Positions 24,248 to 42,614 of a stretch of 64,000 bases of DNA are shown here, piece by piece. The DNA lies in IMG/VR virus record IMGVR_UViG_3300020171_000001, positions 1 to 64,000 of that record. One strand, given 5' to 3'. Made by a program: the position numbers and the translations under genes. The notes under the pieces were generated by a model. It had not been told where the DNA came from. It saw only the letters and a program-made list of their open reading frames with translations, and did no database searches. Source of the DNA: a virus. Numbering within the stretch: position 1 is the first letter of the stretch; each line of letters opens with the position of its first letter.

Positions 24248-25299
24248 TACGGGCGGCCCCCCTTCGGGGCGACTGGGGTCACCTTCACCCCGGAGCGCTT
24301 GGCCCCGAAGGACCAGCGCTTCAGGACCACCACGTCCCCCAACCGGGGCAGCGGGGTGACCTCCTTGTCCATGTAGGCCGGGGCCGGGGCCAGGGCCGGG
24401 ATGGCCTCGGCGATCTCGGCCCACCGGGCCACGGCCTTGGGATCGGAGGTGAACTCCATCCCCTGGGCCCCCTGGGCTTGGTGGCGCTGGCCACCCTTGC
24501 GGCCCCGCCGGGCCGCCTTCATGCCGCGAACGCGGCCCTGGGCCGCCTCGGCGGCCCGCCGCTCGGCCTGCGCGGTGCGGAGCACCGCTTGGAGCTGCGA
24601 CAGCAGCTCCAGGGTGGGGGCCGCCTCGGCCGCGGCCTCGCCGGCCGCCTCGGCGGCCTGGCTGGCGGTGCGGGCCCGGGCCGAAGCCCGGGCGATGGCG
24701 TCGAGCTGGGCCGCGCCCAGCTCGCCCAGGTCCTCCGGCTCGCACCGGAGGCTCCGGGCGACCGCACTGACGAGGCCCAGGATCTGGGCCTCGGCCCGGG
24801 CGAGGGCCTGGGCGGCCTCGGCGGCCTCGGCCGGGGCCAGGGCCCCGGCGGCCGCGCCGGCCCACTCGGCCGGCCGCAGCTGGCGGAGCTGCGCCAGGGC
24901 GGCCCGCAGGTCGCCCTCCTCCAGCGCCAGGGCCGCGCGGGCCCCGGCGTCCTCGAGGACCGCGCCGACCCGCAGGTCGGCCGCGGTTCGGGCGGTAGCC
25001 CGGGTCGCCGCCACGTGGGCGGTCCAGGAGGCCTCGACGAGGCCGCCCAACGCCAGGGCCTTGGCCTCGGCGATGCGCCGGGCCTCTGCCTCGGCGCGCC
25101 GGGCCGCGCGGCTGGCCGCCGCGGCGGCCGGGTCGGTCCGGTCAGCGACCGGGCCCCCGTTCGCGGGGGGCAGCGGGTTCCGGGCAGAATTGCGGAGCAG
25201 GCGGGCCTGCTCCTCCTGGACCTTTCTCAGGGCCCAGGCCGCGGCCTTGTCGCCGCGGGCTGCTGCGTCCCGCAGGACGCGTTCGAGTAGTTGGTTCAT
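24247..25299 (-). CDS. Ala-rich coiled-coil protein
   Basis: 350 aa with very high Ala; residues 60-250 are near-continuous helix. A basic patch (RGMKAARRGRKGGQRHQ) at about 265 precedes a beta-type tail. No family. First gene downstream of the 1-kb control region, so its leader would contain the tRNA-like element at 25485-25552. Confidence 0.8.
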   Translation of the reverse strand: MNQLLERVLRDAAARGDKAAAWALRKVQEEQARLLRNSARNPLPPANGGPVADRTDPAAAAASRAARRAEAEARRIAEAKALALGGLVEASWTAHVAATRATARTAADLRVGAVLEDAGARAALALEEGDLRAALAQLRQLRPAEWAGAAAGALAPAEAAEAAQALARAEAQILGLVSAVARSLRCEPEDLGELGAAQLDAIARASARARTASQAAEAAGEAAAEAAPTLELLSQLQAVLRTAQAERRAAEAAQGRVRGMKAARRGRKGGQRHQAQGAQGMEFTSDPKAVARWAEIAEAIPALAPAPAYMDKEVTPLPRLGDVVVLKRWSFGAKRSGVKVTPVAPKGGRP

Positions 25300-25484
25300 G
25301 GTGATGTCTCCTTCGCCCGGGTACTGGCCGGGCTCATCACGGTTGGGGAGCAGCAGCCGATATCAGCGCTCGCTCCGTCTGGTGAAAGTCAGGTAGGGAG
25401 ATGTGGGTCGAGAGACCCCTCCCGTGTGCCTGGCTTTCGGCTGTCGGGCTCGGAGCCGGAATTGGCTCAGAGTCCGCAGCGCGG

Positions 25485-25552
25485 TCCCGGCCGGGGGTGT
25501 CGAACCCCCGGGGCTGGCGGCTTGGGAGCCACCTGCCCGGTCCTCCGCCGGG
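25485..25552 (-). ncRNA. tRNA-like element 1 (68 nt)
   Basis: Minus strand: CCCGGCG at the 5' end pairs with GGCCGGG (6 of 7 pairs), discriminator A, then CC. A perfect 5-bp T stem closes loop TTCGACA, and T54 to the discriminator is exactly 19 nt as in tRNA. The 36-nt body (41 in normal tRNA) holds one hairpin, GGTGGC-TCCCAA-GCCGCC, and no D arm. Degenerate tRNA or tRNA mimic. Confidence 0.45.
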
Positions 25553-25565
25553 AGGGATAGGGGGC

Positions 25566-25608
25566 GGGCCAGGTCGGGTGGGAACCCGTGGGTCCTGGCT
25601 CGCCCCCC
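25566..25608. repeat. Extended stem-loop
   Basis: GGGGGCG pairs with CGCCCCC at the outside, CCAGG with CCTGG inside, and a CGGG-CCCG hairpin at the tip. Too long and ordered for chance in this setting; could be an RNA processing or termination structure. No T-run follows on either strand. Confidence 0.5.
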
Positions 25609-25655
25609 AGTAGTCGGTTGGGGACCGTGGCCCACAGTTTGGGCCCCGGAAACTG

Positions 25656-25742
25656 ACTGGCTGGTCAGCCAGTTAGCCGGGGCTACGAGATGACCGACTG
25701 GTCAGTTTGGTAGTTGGGGCTACGAGATGACCGACTGGTCAG
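25656..25742. repeat. Paired 27-bp direct repeats plus palindrome
   Basis: Two perfect 27-bp copies (25679-25705 and 25716-25742; begin GGGGCTACGAGATGACC), spaced 37 bp apart, each containing GACCGACTGGTC. Just left, ACTGGCT-GGTC-AGCCAGT (25656-25673) is a perfect 7-bp inverted repeat sharing the ACTGG core. Pattern of a multi-site operator. Confidence 0.65.
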
Positions 25743-25790
25743 GATACCTACATCGCCCTACCTGTGGGGTATGGTAAGGTAAGGTTCTGT

Positions 25791-25972
25791 GGGGCAAAAT
25801 GCCCCGGTGGGGTGTGGCAGAACGCCCCAACTGGGGAGAAATTCCCCAGTGAGGTGCCATGGCGAGGGGGGTGCAGTCACCCCAGTCTCTCCTGGCATAC
25901 CCAATCCACTGGGGCAAAATGCCCCAACTGGGGCAAAATGCCCCAACTGCCCCAACTGGGGCAAAATGCCAC
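25791..25972. repeat. Array of GGGGCA-AAA-TGCCCC hairpins
   Basis: Identical 15-bp hairpins at 25791-25805, 25911-25925 and 25930-25944, a truncated copy from 25958, and a variant ACTGGGGA-GAAAT-TCCCCAGT at 25831-25849. The last three are spaced by AACT linkers with an extra half unit. Not a CRISPR: units are palindromic and linkers are 4-13 nt. Confidence 0.7.
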
Positions 25973-25978
25973 ACTCGG

Positions 25979-26046
25979 TGGCAGCAAGGGGAGTCGAACC
26001 CCCAGCAGCCCCAAGGCATAGCCCGGGGGCGCGTTCCGACGCTGCC
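25979..26046 (-). ncRNA. tRNA-like element 2 (68 nt)
   Basis: GGCAGCG pairs with TGCTGCC (7 bp, one G-U), discriminator A then CC. The T arm is GGGGG-TTCGACT-CCCCT, with T54 19 nt from the discriminator. The body is again 36 nt, with a single arm GCCCC...GGGGC and no D arm. Length and layout match element 1 exactly although the sequence differs. Confidence 0.45.
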
Positions 26047-26324
26047 AGATGTGCTTGGCCGATTGCGGCCAAGCGTCTGACTGTACCCTTGCTTGCACCC
26101 GGAACCTAGCGACCGCGGGGGACATGAAGCTGGTATCTCCGCGGCAGGACTCCCCATCGGGGTACTGCGGGAACCTTGTAGGTCCGGGTGGCCCATGTCT
26201 GCAAGCCTTGCGGCGAGACATGCGGCGTATTCGGTTGTCAAGGTGCCACACTACCCATTCCGGGCAGTGCGCTCCGGCAGCAACACCTTCACTGCCAGAT
26301 AGTGTGCCTCAGCGGCACACCTTC

Positions 26325-26876
26325 CTACCGCTCCGACACCCCCCGTGTCGCAGCGGCCACGGCCCGCTGCCGCGTCCGCCCCTTGCCCCGCTTACGCTTG
26401 CCCCGCTTACGGGGGCCGCGGTCCTCCGGGATGGACGCCATGACCGCCGGGATGTCACCTGACATCCGGGCCAGCGCGTCGGGCCGCGGGAAACGGGTGG
26501 ACTGCGCTGCGGTCCACAAAGCCAGGGTGTTGTCCTGGACTTCCCGGTTGCCCGCCGGAACCCCCGAGTGCTTCGGGGACTCCACAACCCGCTTCTGCCG
26601 GGGGCCAGCACCCGAGAGGGCCTTACGGCGCTCCCGTGCCCCGTCCAGCACCGAACGGGCCCGTTCCCGCTCCTGGACGGTTGTGCCCCTCTGTTGCAAG
26701 GTACGCTCGGCCCCCAGCATGGCCGACTCGTACCGGGCCGTGACACGGGACAAGTCCCGCGCCATGTCCTCTGGCACGCCACGCCGACGCAGCGTCCAGT
26801 AGTCGAGGCGAACCCGGAGGGTCGCCTCAACCTGTCGCTGCGGGACGGTCCCGTTGCTACCGTTGCCGCGTGCCAT
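26325..26876 (-). CDS. Basic hypothetical protein
   Basis: 183 aa; ATG 26876 has AGGAG 6 nt upstream. Helical (TLQQRGTTVQERERARSVL) with a very basic tail (RGPRKRGKRKRGKGRTRQR), typical of DNA/RNA-associated phage proteins. Translation starts just after tRNA-like element 3. Confidence 0.78.
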   Translation of the reverse strand: MARGNGSNGTVPQRQVEATLRVRLDYWTLRRRGVPEDMARDLSRVTARYESAMLGAERTLQQRGTTVQERERARSVLDGARERRKALSGAGPRQKRVVESPKHSGVPAGNREVQDNTLALWTAAQSTRFPRPDALARMSGDIPAVMASIPEDRGPRKRGKRKRGKGRTRQRAVAAATRGVSER

Positions 26877-26893
26877 TGCTCTCCTCTCCTCGG

Positions 26894-26938
26894 TGCCGGG
26901 CCGGGGATTCGAACCCCGCGACTGCGCCTTTGCCCGGC
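26894..26938 (-). ncRNA. tRNA-like element 3 (acceptor/T-arm minihelix)
   Basis: GCCGGGC and GCCCGGC form a perfect 7-bp acceptor stem around only 13 nt plus a perfect T arm (CGGGG-TTCGAAT-CCCCG); discriminator A, CC, and T54 again at 19 nt. No D or anticodon arm fits. The 3' end lies 3 nt before GAGGAGAGGAG, the ribosome site of the gene starting at 26876. Confidence 0.45.
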
Positions 26939-26968
26939 AAAGCCCCGGCCCCGAAGGGCCGGAGCTTT
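26939..26968 (-). terminator. Long UUCG-capped hairpin, possible terminator
   Basis: Minus-strand AAAGC-t-CCGGCCC-TTCG-GGGCCGG-g-GCTTT: 12 pairs with one mismatch and a UUCG tetraloop, 5 nt past the stop of the gene ending at 26974. Only three Ts follow, so it may stabilise or process the mRNA instead of terminating it. Confidence 0.5.
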
Positions 26969-26973
26969 TGCTG

Positions 26974-27504
26974 CTACACCTTGCCCACCGGGGCCCTTTT
27001 GTCCGGCGCCACGTTGCCCAACGTGGCCAGGGTGGCCAGGATGGCGTTGACCGCATCGAGGTCCTTGGCGCTGTCCAGCGTGGTCATGCGGTCCCGGATG
27101 GCCCCGGGATCCGTCGTTGCCGCCAGGATCTCGGTCATGGCGTTGGCCTTGGCCTTGTCGAGCCCCTTGGGGGCCGGGGCCTCGATCCCGTGCCGCTCCC
27201 GGATCTCCCCGGCCAGCGCCGTGGCCAGGTCCTTGGCCACGGTGCCGAAGCCCGCGCTGACCGCCTTGGCCCGGGCGTAGGACATCTCCTGCTCCGGGGT
27301 GAGCCCGGAGAGGAAGCCCGCGTGGGCCACCGTCTCCTCCAGGTCCGCCGTGTACCTCAGCGTCCTGGTCTGGGCCTGGACGCGGAGCCTGCGCTCCGCG
27401 CCTGCCACCGCCTGCTTGACCAGGGCCGACTGGAGCGCCTCGCACCCAAGGTCTGCCAGGATGGCCTGTGCTTTCTCCGCCGGGGTCTGCTTCGTGCTAG
27501 CCAT
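26974..27504 (-). CDS. Hypothetical helical protein
   Basis: 176 aa; ATG 27504 with AGGAGA 8 nt upstream. Helical throughout (GFGTVAKDLATALAGEIRERHG written in part); ends APDKRAPVGKV. No family. Confidence 0.78.
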   Translation of the reverse strand: MASTKQTPAEKAQAILADLGCEALQSALVKQAVAGAERRLRVQAQTRTLRYTADLEETVAHAGFLSGLTPEQEMSYARAKAVSAGFGTVAKDLATALAGEIRERHGIEAPAPKGLDKAKANAMTEILAATTDPGAIRDRMTTLDSAKDLDAVNAILATLATLGNVAPDKRAPVGKV

Positions 27505-28943: not shown

Positions 28944-29345
28944 TTAGCTGTTGAGCGCGGCGCTGTAGCCGCTGCGCCGGTTGATGATGGCCTTGGCAGC
29001 CTGCACGTCTACCGTGCGGCGCACCGTGTTGCGGATGCGGCGGATGATGTCCTCTGCGGCCACGCCGTGGTTCAGGTATGCCGCCACGTCCCGGGCGAAC
29101 GCGGCTACTGACCGAGTGCCCCTGGCGCTGTTGCACCGGAGGCAGCTGGTCACCAAGTTGCTGTTGGCGTGGCTCCCCCCCTTGGAGTAGGGGCGGAGGT
29201 GGTCCAGGGTCAGGACCGCCCCGTCCTCCACCCCGTGCCCGCAGTAGCAGCACGCCAGTCCGTCTCGCGAGTACAGGGCCAGCCGTCGCTCCCTACGGAG
29301 CCACTTGCTGCCCTGGTATCCTGCCCCCTTGCCGCGTGCTGCCAT
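28944..29345 (-). CDS. HNH endonuclease
   Basis: 133 aa. Classical zinc-bound HNH: CCYCG (about 32-36), LTLDHLRPYSKGG with the catalytic DH, NLVTSCLRCN with N and the second CxxC. Basic N terminus. Stand-alone HNH nucleases act as homing enzymes or, near packaging genes, as terminase helpers; no terminase is seen here. First gene of the leftward run, with AAGGAG before its ATG. Confidence 0.93.
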   Translation of the reverse strand: MAARGKGAGYQGSKWLRRERRLALYSRDGLACCYCGHGVEDGAVLTLDHLRPYSKGGSHANSNLVTSCLRCNSARGTRSVAAFARDVAAYLNHGVAAEDIIRRIRNTVRRTVDVQAAKAIINRRSGYSAALNS

Positions 29346-40796: not shown

Positions 40797-42614
40797 ATGA
40801 GAACGAGCGTAAAGCCCATCATCGGAATCGACCTGGGGACCACGCACACGGTCATGGCCTGCGTGGACGAGCTGGAAGGGCCCGCGCGGGTCGTGGCGAT
40901 TCCGCAGGTGACGGGGCCCGGAGTCGTGGAGTCCCGGGACGTACTGCCCTCCTTCATCTACCTGGCGGCTGGACCCGAGCTGCCGCCCGGGGCCCTGCGC
41001 CTGCCGTGGTCGGAAAGCGGTCGTGACTACGTCGTGGGTGAACTGGCCCGGTCGCAGGGCTCTGCGGTGCCAACCCGTCTGGTAGCGTCAGCCAAGTCGT
41101 GGCTGTGCCACCCAGGTGTGGACCGCACGGCGCCTGTGCTGCCGTGGCGGGCCCCGGCAGACGTGGCAGGCATCTCTCCCTTGGACGCCACCACGCGCAT
41201 CCTGGAGCACCTCCGAAGCGCCTGGGGCCATGCCCACGGGCACGGGCACGTCGCTGCGGGGGCCGCGCTGGGTGCGTCGGGTTCGCTCTTGAGCGATCTG
41301 GACGTGTTCTTGACTGTGCCGGCGTCCTTCGACGCGGTGGCTCGAGAGATGACCATGACCGCGGCCCACCGGGCAGGTCTGGAACGGGTCACCCTGCTGG
41401 AAGAGCCCCAGGCCGCTTTCTATGCTTGGCTCGCCGCAACCGGGGAGACATGGCGGGACCTACTGAAGGTCGGGGACGTGGCGCTGGTGTGCGACGTGGG
41501 TGGGGGAACCACTGACTTCTCCCTCATCGAAGTGGCGAGCCGGGGCGGGGACCTCGCTCTGGAACGCGTGGCGGTAGGCGACCACCTGATGCTGGGCGGC
41601 GACAACATGGACCTAGCCCTGGCGCACGTCCTGGCGGCTCGCCTCGGGGGCGGCTTGGACGCTTGGCAAGCCCGTTCCCTGTGGATCGTGGCTCGGGATG
41701 CCAAGGAGCAGCTCCTGGCAGATCCAGAGCGTCTGTCGGCGCCGGTGACCGTGCTGGGACGCGGATCCCGTGTCGTGGGCAAAGCAGTGACCACTGAGCT
41801 CACGCAGGCCGATGTGCAGCAGGTGATCCTGGACGGTTTCTTCCCACGGTGCACTGCAGATGCCCGGCCGGTCGTGGGCCGGCGCTCCGGTATTCAGGAG
41901 GCGGGGCTGCCCTACGCCTCGGACCCGGCGGTTACGCGGCACCTCGCCCGGTTCGTGGGGGACCATGGCAAGATGCCTACAGCCATCCTGTTCAACGGGG
42001 GCGTGATGAAGGCCGCAGCGCTTCGCCAACGGATCGCTGAGGTGCTGGAAAGCTGGATGCCCGACTCAGGGACTCTCCGAGTCCTCGAGAGCGTGAGCCT
42101 GGACTTGGCCGTGGCGCAGGGCGCTGCAGTCTACGGCCGGGTGCGCCAGAGCGGCAAGGGCGTTCGGATTCGGGGCGGGACGGCTCGGTCGTACTACCTC
42201 GGCATCGAGGGCGCCATGCCAGCGATCCCAGGCCTCCCGCCGCCGCTCAAGGCCCTGTGCGTGGTGCCCTTCGGCATGGAGGAAGGCACCGAGGCCGATG
42301 TGCCGGGGCCCGAGCTGGCCCTGGTGGTGGGCGAACCGGCCGAGTTCCGATTTCTGTCCTCCACGGTGCGCAAAGACGATGGACTGGGCGCTCTGTTGGA
42401 AACCTGGTCTTCGCAGGAAATCAAGGAGCTGGCACCCGTCAGGGCCGCGATGGAGGGCCCGGGCAGCGCCACGGTCCTGGTCACACTGCATGCCCGGGTC
42501 ACCGAGGTAGGCACCCTGGAGCTCGAGCTGCGCTCGCTGCAGGATGACCATGTCTGGAAGCTGGAATACTCAGTGCGGGAGCAGCAGGACACGGCTCCGC
42601 CCATTGGCTCGTAG
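40797..42614 (+). CDS. Hsp70/DnaK-like ATPase
   Basis: 605 aa. Actin-like ATPase motifs: IGIDLGTTHT at residues 8-17 (phosphate 1), EEPQAAFYAW, CDVGGGTTDFSLIE (phosphate 2), GGDNMDLALAHVLA, ILFNGGVMKA and a late VAQGAAVYG (adenosine). A divergent beta-rich region follows instead of a canonical substrate domain and EEVD-type tail, so this belongs to the large uncharacterised Hsp70-family group. No DnaJ or GrpE lies near. ATG 40797 starts close to the family N terminus; the ribosome site is weak and leaderless initiation possible. Confidence 0.9.
   Translation: MRTSVKPIIGIDLGTTHTVMACVDELEGPARVVAIPQVTGPGVVESRDVLPSFIYLAAGPELPPGALRLPWSESGRDYVVGELARSQGSAVPTRLVASAKSWLCHPGVDRTAPVLPWRAPADVAGISPLDATTRILEHLRSAWGHAHGHGHVAAGAALGASGSLLSDLDVFLTVPASFDAVAREMTMTAAHRAGLERVTLLEEPQAAFYAWLAATGETWRDLLKVGDVALVCDVGGGTTDFSLIEVASRGGDLALERVAVGDHLMLGGDNMDLALAHVLAARLGGGLDAWQARSLWIVARDAKEQLLADPERLSAPVTVLGRGSRVVGKAVTTELTQADVQQVILDGFFPRCTADARPVVGRRSGIQEAGLPYASDPAVTRHLARFVGDHGKMPTAILFNGGVMKAAALRQRIAEVLESWMPDSGTLRVLESVSLDLAVAQGAAVYGRVRQSGKGVRIRGGTARSYYLGIEGAMPAIPGLPPPLKALCVVPFGMEEGTEADVPGPELALVVGEPAEFRFLSSTVRKDDGLGALLETWSSQEIKELAPVRAAMEGPGSATVLVTLHARVTEVGTLELELRSLQDDHVWKLEYSVREQQDTAPPIGS

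What the first reader, a model, noticed from the sequence alone, without database searches (positions are those of the whole stretch)
25485..26938. Three tRNA-like RNAs sharing acceptor and T arms but lacking D arms
Three minus-strand elements within 1.5 kb each have a self-complementary 7-nt acceptor stem, a discriminator A followed by CC, a perfect-geometry T arm (T54 exactly 19 nt from the discriminator) and a reduced body. Two are 68 nt with a 36-nt body and a single arm; the third has almost no body. Their sequences differ, so this is not simple duplication. Such mimics could recruit RNase P, CCA-adding enzyme or EF-Tu, or mark processing sites in the leftward mRNA: element 3 ends just before a ribosome site, and element 1 precedes another gene.
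Basis: partly seen in the sequence, partly recalled or inferred. Interest (0 to 1): 0.8.

Follow-up and report, generated by a model that had tools for sequence, protein, structure and literature searches.

The report
Mini tRNA-like elements punctuating phage operons
Short RNA elements that imitate only the top half of a transfer RNA sit between genes of this virus, and the same kind of element, with matching compensatory changes, fills most gaps between genes in stretches of several unrelated bacterial viruses, most likely as cutting signals that chop one long messenger RNA into single-gene messages.

Summary
The three elements are real. The window is part of a 157,287-base phage record without ordinary tRNAs. 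A scan for an acceptor stem plus T arm finds exactly these three places, all on one strand within 1.5 kb and all followed by ACCG; dinucleotide shuffles give 0.17 hits per genome, none with ACC. All share U(-1), a 12-bp acceptor/T-arm stack, a GG about three bases after the acceptor, and R73-C74.

The unexpected result is a family. Gordonia phages VanLee, Cafasso and Morgana, mycobacteriophages Fowlmouth and Indlulamithi, and 27 IMG/VR contigs carry 40-70-nt elements of the same build. They fill 16/17, 11/14 and 8/12 intergenic gaps (VanLee, Indlulamithi, Fowlmouth), typically about 8 nt after a stop codon and 40-46 nt before the next start. T-stem pairs left free in my search pattern covary strongly. 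The family is unannotated there and has no Rfam entry. A model built without the window elements ranks TLS3 first in the genome (a broader one gives 27.2 bits, E 0.011); TLS1 and TLS2 match only through geometry.

Best reading: minimal pre-tRNA mimics cut by host RNase P, punctuating polycistronic phage mRNA. Cleavage is inferred, not shown.

The parts
26894..26938 (-). TLS3: minimal tRNA-like element, 45 nt, 7-bp acceptor + 5-bp T stem, followed by CCG (26893-26891)
   Evidence: sequence; only-three scan; top hit of models R1 and R2 built without it
25979..26046 (-). TLS2: tRNA-like element, 68 nt, long form with one extra hairpin, followed by CCG
   Evidence: sequence; fold; scan; model support only through the T arm
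25485..25552 (-). TLS1: tRNA-like element, 68 nt, 6-bp acceptor + 6-bp T stem, extra hairpin with loop UCCCAA, followed by CCG
   Evidence: sequence; fold; scan; model support only through the T arm
26945..26962 (-). UUCG hairpin between the upstream stop codon (26976-26974) and TLS3
   Evidence: sequence; the same stem is listed as terminator-like on the + strand
26877..26890 (-). leader with ribosome site GAGGAGAGGAGAGC between TLS3 and ATG of gene 26876-26325
   Evidence: sequence
26238..26322 (-). three consecutive hairpins at the start of the non-coding stretch; relation to the elements unknown
   Evidence: fold z-score -4.9
25300..26324 (-). 1-kb stretch without called genes that holds TLS2 and TLS1; possible non-coding RNA or control region
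   Evidence: gene calls; folding z-scores; repeats

Best explanation
The elements are minimal precursor-tRNA mimics that work as punctuation marks in polycistronic phage RNA. Each keeps what bacterial RNase P reads (a 12-bp acceptor/T-arm stack, a UUCRA T loop that a GG remnant of the D loop can dock on, and a 3' R-C(-C)) and drops the D and anticodon arms needed for decoding. Host RNase P would cut at the 5' edge of the element, shortly after the upstream stop codon, and separate the upstream message from the downstream one; 3' trimming (RNase Z or exonucleases) may free the element and leave a short leader with the next ribosome site. Shown here: the anatomy, non-randomness, a wider element family with compensatory stem changes, and its placement between genes. 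Inferred: transcription, RNase P cleavage, and the effect on expression of each gene. TLS3 is a family member by model score and context; TLS1 and TLS2 are placed with it by geometry and proximity and may bound a non-coding RNA.
For: Only three such places in 157 kb, all followed by ACCG, against 0.17 per shuffled genome. Same architecture in five annotated actinophages and 27 IMG/VR contigs. T-stem pairs not fixed by the search pattern: 24 of 27 hits have all four paired; 99.2% of cells paired, covariation score 0.471 against 0.116 shuffled. One element in 16/17, 11/14 and 8/12 gaps of at least 60 nt, typically about 8 nt after the stop and 40-46 nt before the next start; the same in many IMG/VR contigs. 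GG 2-4 nt after the acceptor in 30 of 32 and C74 in 32 of 32 where not imposed. TLS3 27.2 bits, E 0.011, in a model built without it; ordinary tRNAs reach at most 19.2 bits. RNase P cuts acceptor/T-arm model hairpins, measures the 12-bp stack, pairs with 3' RCC, and cuts phage M3 and C4 RNAs (PMC11143913).
Against: No RNA data of any kind. No close relative of this phage region, so no covariation test of TLS1-3 themselves. TLS1 and TLS2 are not between two genes and score only through the T arm. Window elements have U(-1) and acceptors that differ from the GCCCYG of most family members. Most family members encode R-C-G, not R-C-C.
Confidence: 0.6

Rival explanations
1. The elements are stable 5' or 3' structures that protect messages from exonucleases or set translation of the next gene, recognised as folds only; RNase P cleavage is absent or incidental.
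For: They sit just after stop codons and before ribosome sites. Mycobacteriophage Bongo has other, non-tRNA hairpins in gaps of the same size.
Against: A plain hairpin would not need the T loop UUCRA, the exact 12-bp stack, GG near the acceptor and R73-C74, all of which are kept.
Confidence: 0.17
2. The elements are released as small tRNA-like RNAs that act in trans: decoys for a tRNA-binding host factor (RNase P itself, CCA-adding enzyme, tRNA modification enzymes or a tRNA-directed defence).
For: Many copies per genome in some phages; tRNA mimicry by bacterial Y RNAs is a precedent (Rfam YrlA).
Against: Regular one-per-gap placement fixed to stop codons points to a role in cis; decoys could be clustered anywhere. 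No anticodon, so no bait for anticodon nucleases.
Confidence: 0.1
3. TLS1 and TLS2 in the window are domains or end-processing signals of one larger structured non-coding RNA in 25300-26324, comparable in habit to GOLLD or ROOL; TLS3 is separate.
For: 1 kb without called genes, strong folding (z -5.7 for 25979-26324), repeats between them. GOLLD linkers sometimes hold phage tRNAs (PMC12286853).
Against: No Rfam match to GOLLD or ROOL; no relatives; GC-rich coding sequence nearby also folds strongly, and palindromic repeats may be DNA sites.
Confidence: 0.1
4. The elements are decayed tRNA genes or tRNA-derived phage attachment sites.
For: Phages often carry tRNA genes and tRNA-derived att sites (general knowledge). 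The TLS1 hairpin loop UCCCAA recalls a tRNA-Gly(CCC) anticodon loop (own reading).
Against: All three keep complete stems including the 5' acceptor strand; the family shows compensatory change and regular spacing, which decay or att sites would not give.
Confidence: 0.03

Closest known systems
RNase P minimal substrates (AT1-type acceptor/T-arm hairpin; phage M3 and C4 RNAs)
   Same: Acceptor stem, T stem and T loop with 3' RCC are enough for bacterial RNase P; phage RNAs are among known substrates (PMC11143913)
   Different: AT1 is man-made; M3 and C4 are single RNAs, not repeated elements in gene gaps; cleavage is not shown here
mascRNA / MEN beta tRNA-like RNA (RF01684)
   Same: Reduced body, acceptor and T arm, lies in a long transcript and is cut by RNase P (established knowledge); best Rfam similarity of TLS3 (23.1 bits)
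   Different: Animal nuclear RNAs; score far below the 42.5-bit threshold; no multiple copies between protein genes
tRNA punctuation of mitochondrial RNA
   Same: tRNA-like structures between genes mark where one long transcript is cut
   Different: Uses real, decoding tRNAs; here the elements cannot decode
YrlA bacterial Y RNA (RF02553)
   Same: Phage and bacterial RNA that mimics tRNA with a T arm; found in Gordonia phage Rabbitrun
   Different: Binds Ro protein, other order of arms; no TROVE gene in this record
tmRNA tRNA-like domain
   Same: Acceptor and T arm without a normal D stem
   Different: Long, with a tag reading frame; no tmRNA found by ARAGORN in the window or by Rfam in the record

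Membership tests
Phage intergenic mini tRNA-like element (family defined here) | 12-bp acceptor/T stack, TTCRA T loop, GG 2-4 nt after the acceptor, R73-C74 | tested here: met
   All three window elements pass the strict scan
Phage intergenic mini tRNA-like element (family defined here) | Match to a covariance model built from other members | tested here: inconclusive
   TLS3 met (27.2 bits, E 0.011); TLS2 and TLS1 rank next but at E about 1-7 through the T arm
Phage intergenic mini tRNA-like element (family defined here) | Placed between a stop codon and the next start on the same strand | tested here: inconclusive
   TLS3 met; TLS1 and TLS2 lie in a 1-kb stretch without called genes
tRNA | Cloverleaf with D arm and 5-bp/7-nt anticodon arm; tRNA model score | tested here: not met
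   ARAGORN 0 in the window, RF00005 no match
tmRNA | tRNA-like domain joined to a tag reading frame | tested here: not met
   ARAGORN (window) and Rfam (record) find none
mascRNA-menRNA (RF01684) | Score at or above the curated threshold of 42.5 bits | tested here: not met
   TLS3 23.1, TLS2 17.6 bits
YrlA / Ro-Y RNA system | RF02553 match and a Ro (TROVE) protein gene | tested here: not met
   No RF02553 match in the window; PF05731 absent from the record
GOLLD / ROOL large phage RNAs | Match to their Rfam models | tested here: not met
   No match in the record, nor at relaxed threshold in 25200-27200
RNase P substrate | Recognition features: 12-bp stack, T loop, 3' RCC | tested here: met
   Sequence against the features described in PMC11143913
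RNase P substrate | Cleavage at the 5' edge by bacterial RNase P | not testable with these tools
   Needs RNA ends or an in vitro assay

The most novel reading that the evidence does not exclude
Several unrelated phages use a family of D-armless mini tRNA mimics, about one per gene gap, to have host RNase P cut their polycistronic mRNA into single-gene messages: a viral counterpart of mitochondrial tRNA punctuation made from tRNA halves. The window phage carries divergent members, including long forms that may release a non-coding RNA.
Probability: 0.5. Interest if true: 0.88.

Novelty: new variant of a known kind. Interest (0 to 1): 0.8.

Why it matters
If right, phages have a general way to borrow host RNase P for message processing, by elements that tRNA finders miss: ARAGORN and Rfam's tRNA model do not report them, and the VanLee announcement lists one tRNA (PMC8320454). 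It would explain regular gaps of about 90-100 nt in several actinophage operons, add a natural class of minimal RNase P substrates, and give a marker for phage transcript maps. It is testable now in laboratory phages of Mycobacterium smegmatis and Gordonia.

Tried and rejected
Close relatives of the region: nucleotide and protein searches with neighbouring genes, tail sheath and terminase gave nothing; the phage is close to an orphan, and 63 contigs with a relative of its AAA-ATPase are distant, with only ordinary tRNAs and one tmRNA among the T-arm-plus-ACC matches examined there. Exact patterns for the TLS3 and TLS1 acceptors: none in IMG/VR; six matches in 85,000 genomes, judged chance because none folds with a T arm. 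Ro/Y RNA link: no TROVE gene. Arthrobacter Korravirus element (L094, L139): similar T arm but an A.C mismatch in the acceptor and no model hit, left open. Streptomyces phage SV1 hit: a plain hairpin, not this. Right part of TM4 (cluster K): no element. Bongo (cluster M) gaps hold other hairpins. Bacterial genomes: 1 of 396 and 0 of 299 with a hit, so mostly in phages; the fast filter scored few candidates per genome and the second set had no positive control, so this is weak. att-site and pseudogene readings rejected for the reasons given under rivals. Papers: ten searches found no description, but many subscription papers and all preprints are absent from the library.

Full report
Setting. 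The window is bases 1-64000 of a 157,287-base virus record of IMG/VR. Genes run leftward from about 29.3 kb and rightward from about 30.1 kb. The genes around the finding have no relatives in the libraries and collections searched, except an HNH endonuclease at 28944-29345. No tRNA or tmRNA is found in the record (Rfam; ARAGORN on the window).

Observation. Reading the minus strand: TLS3 is GCCGGGC-AAAGGCGCAGTCG-CGGGGTTCGAATCCCCG-GCCCGGC-A-CCG; TLS2 is GGCAGCG-(36 nt)-GGGGGTTCGACTCCCCT-TGCTGCC-A-CCG; TLS1 is CCCGGC-(36 nt)-CGGGGGTTCGACACCCCCG-GCCGGG-A-CCG. Each has U at -1, a 12-bp acceptor/T stack (7+5, 7+5 with two G.U, 6+6), and a GG about three nucleotides after the acceptor. A scan of all 157 kb finds these three only; shuffles give 0.17 per genome, and none of 100 shuffles gives one with ACC. 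With the GG and R73-C74 criteria, controls give 0 in 1.03 Mb of other phage sequence and 1 in 100 shuffled genomes. The best Rfam similarity of TLS3 is mascRNA, at 23.1 bits against a threshold of 42.5.

From three elements to a family. Exact patterns and protein searches found no close relative. A sensitive nucleotide search with TLS3 against annotated phages gave, among ordinary tRNAs, an unannotated gap in Gordonia phage VanLee. There the same kind of element, mostly 42-52 nt, recurs about 17 times on one strand. Further members were found in Gordonia phages Cafasso and Morgana and mycobacteriophage Fowlmouth and in Indlulamithi. A pattern built from VanLee found 27 IMG/VR contigs, several with many copies, up to 12; one of these contigs has the length and element positions of Fowlmouth and is probably the same phage. 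Typical form: A-GCCCYG, 2-4 nt, GGU, further linker, 6-bp T stem, UUCGAYU, T stem, CRGGGC, A/G, C. Longer forms of 61-67 nt have one extra hairpin, as TLS1 and TLS2 do.

Evidence of selection on structure. The IMG/VR pattern fixed the acceptor (but for one Y/R pair) and the two inner T-stem pairs and left the outer four T-stem pairs free. Of 27 hits, 24 have all four paired and three have three of four, with up to five pair types per position. On 20 distinct cores 99.2% of cells pair, the covariation score is 0.471 against 0.116 +/- 0.022 shuffled and at most 0.130 when partners are slid. In the set of 32 from VanLee, Cafasso, Morgana and Fowlmouth, where these were not imposed, GG lies 2-4 nt after the acceptor in 30 and C74 is present in all. 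The GG(U) can be read as what remains of the D loop (G18 G19 U20) that docks on the T loop; that is inference from tRNA structure. Stem counts from the scanner sets are biased, because the scanner demands pairing; only the free-pair test is used as proof.

Placement. Using the deposited annotation, elements occupy 16 of 17 gaps of at least 60 nt in the VanLee leftward operon, 11 of 14 in Indlulamithi and 8 of 12 in Fowlmouth; three further elements overlap annotated short genes. Typical distances are about 8 nt from the stop codon to the element and 40-46 nt from the element to the next start. IMG/VR contigs often show the same (stop 6-9 nt upstream, ATG 27-63 nt downstream). In the window TLS3 follows this plan: stop codon, UUCG hairpin, element, then GAGGAGAGGAGAGC and ATG. 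TLS2 and TLS1 lie in a 1-kb stretch without called genes and with strong folding.

Do the window elements belong? Model R1 was built from 35 elements without the window ones. In the record TLS3 is its top hit, at 21.8 bits; run through the per-genome search, TLS3, TLS2 and TLS1 are the top three places, while the plain model search also lists an unrelated place at 14.8 bits between TLS2 and TLS1. The broader model R2 gives TLS3 27.2 bits (E 0.011), and the three elements are its only hits up to E 10. Ordinary tRNAs in control phages reach at most 19.2 bits, nearly all through the T arm alone. So TLS3 is a member by score; TLS1 and TLS2 rest on geometry and nearness.

Mechanism. Bacterial RNase P accepts acceptor/T-arm hairpins, measures the 12-bp stack, pairs its GGU with 3' RCC, and is known to cut a few phage RNAs such as M3 and C4 (PMC11143913). 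The elements keep this set of features and lose decoding parts, and they sit where a cut would separate cistrons. I therefore take RNase P-directed punctuation as most likely (0.6). Transcription, cleavage, 3' trimming and any CCA addition are inferred. Structure-only leaders, decoys and a larger non-coding RNA remain open.

Novelty. No Rfam family matches at its threshold. The VanLee announcement reports only one tRNA (PMC8320454). Ten literature searches found no description, but the library lacks most subscription papers and preprints. tRNA-like processing marks are a known kind (mascRNA, mitochondrial punctuation); a D-less version placed systematically in phage operons is, as far as I could check, a new variant.

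Noticed in passing
25790-25973 and 25654-25727: Palindromic repeats: several copies of TGGGGCAAAATGCCCC-type units, and two 37-nt tandem copies around the palindrome TGACCAGTCGGTCA; they could be DNA-binding or origin sites.
   Followed up: no
26238-26322: Three consecutive strong hairpins with complementary outer ends (AAGGTG/CACCTT), just after gene 26876-26325.
   Followed up: partly
L095 1425-1588 (Gordonia phage Rabbitrun): A YrlA-like Y RNA match (31.5 bits, below threshold) next to an RNA-binding protein gene; VanLee also has a Ro-like protein gene.
   Followed up: partly
L094 about 1483-1535 and L139 (Arthrobacter Korravirus phages): An unannotated tRNA-like element after a GC-rich hairpin in one gene gap, with an A.C mismatch in the acceptor; not hit by the family model.
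   Followed up: partly
L141 42316-47605 (Mycobacterium phage Bongo): Gene gaps of similar size hold other hairpins and a repeated CACACGGAGAAGGGA-like ribosome-site motif.
   Followed up: partly
L074 1114-1525: A phage-encoded tmRNA predicted by ARAGORN in an IMG/VR contig.
   Followed up: no
window 40797-42614: A 605-aa protein that looks like DnaK/Hsp70 from its N-terminal sequence; only weak PHROG matches of unknown function.
   Followed up: no
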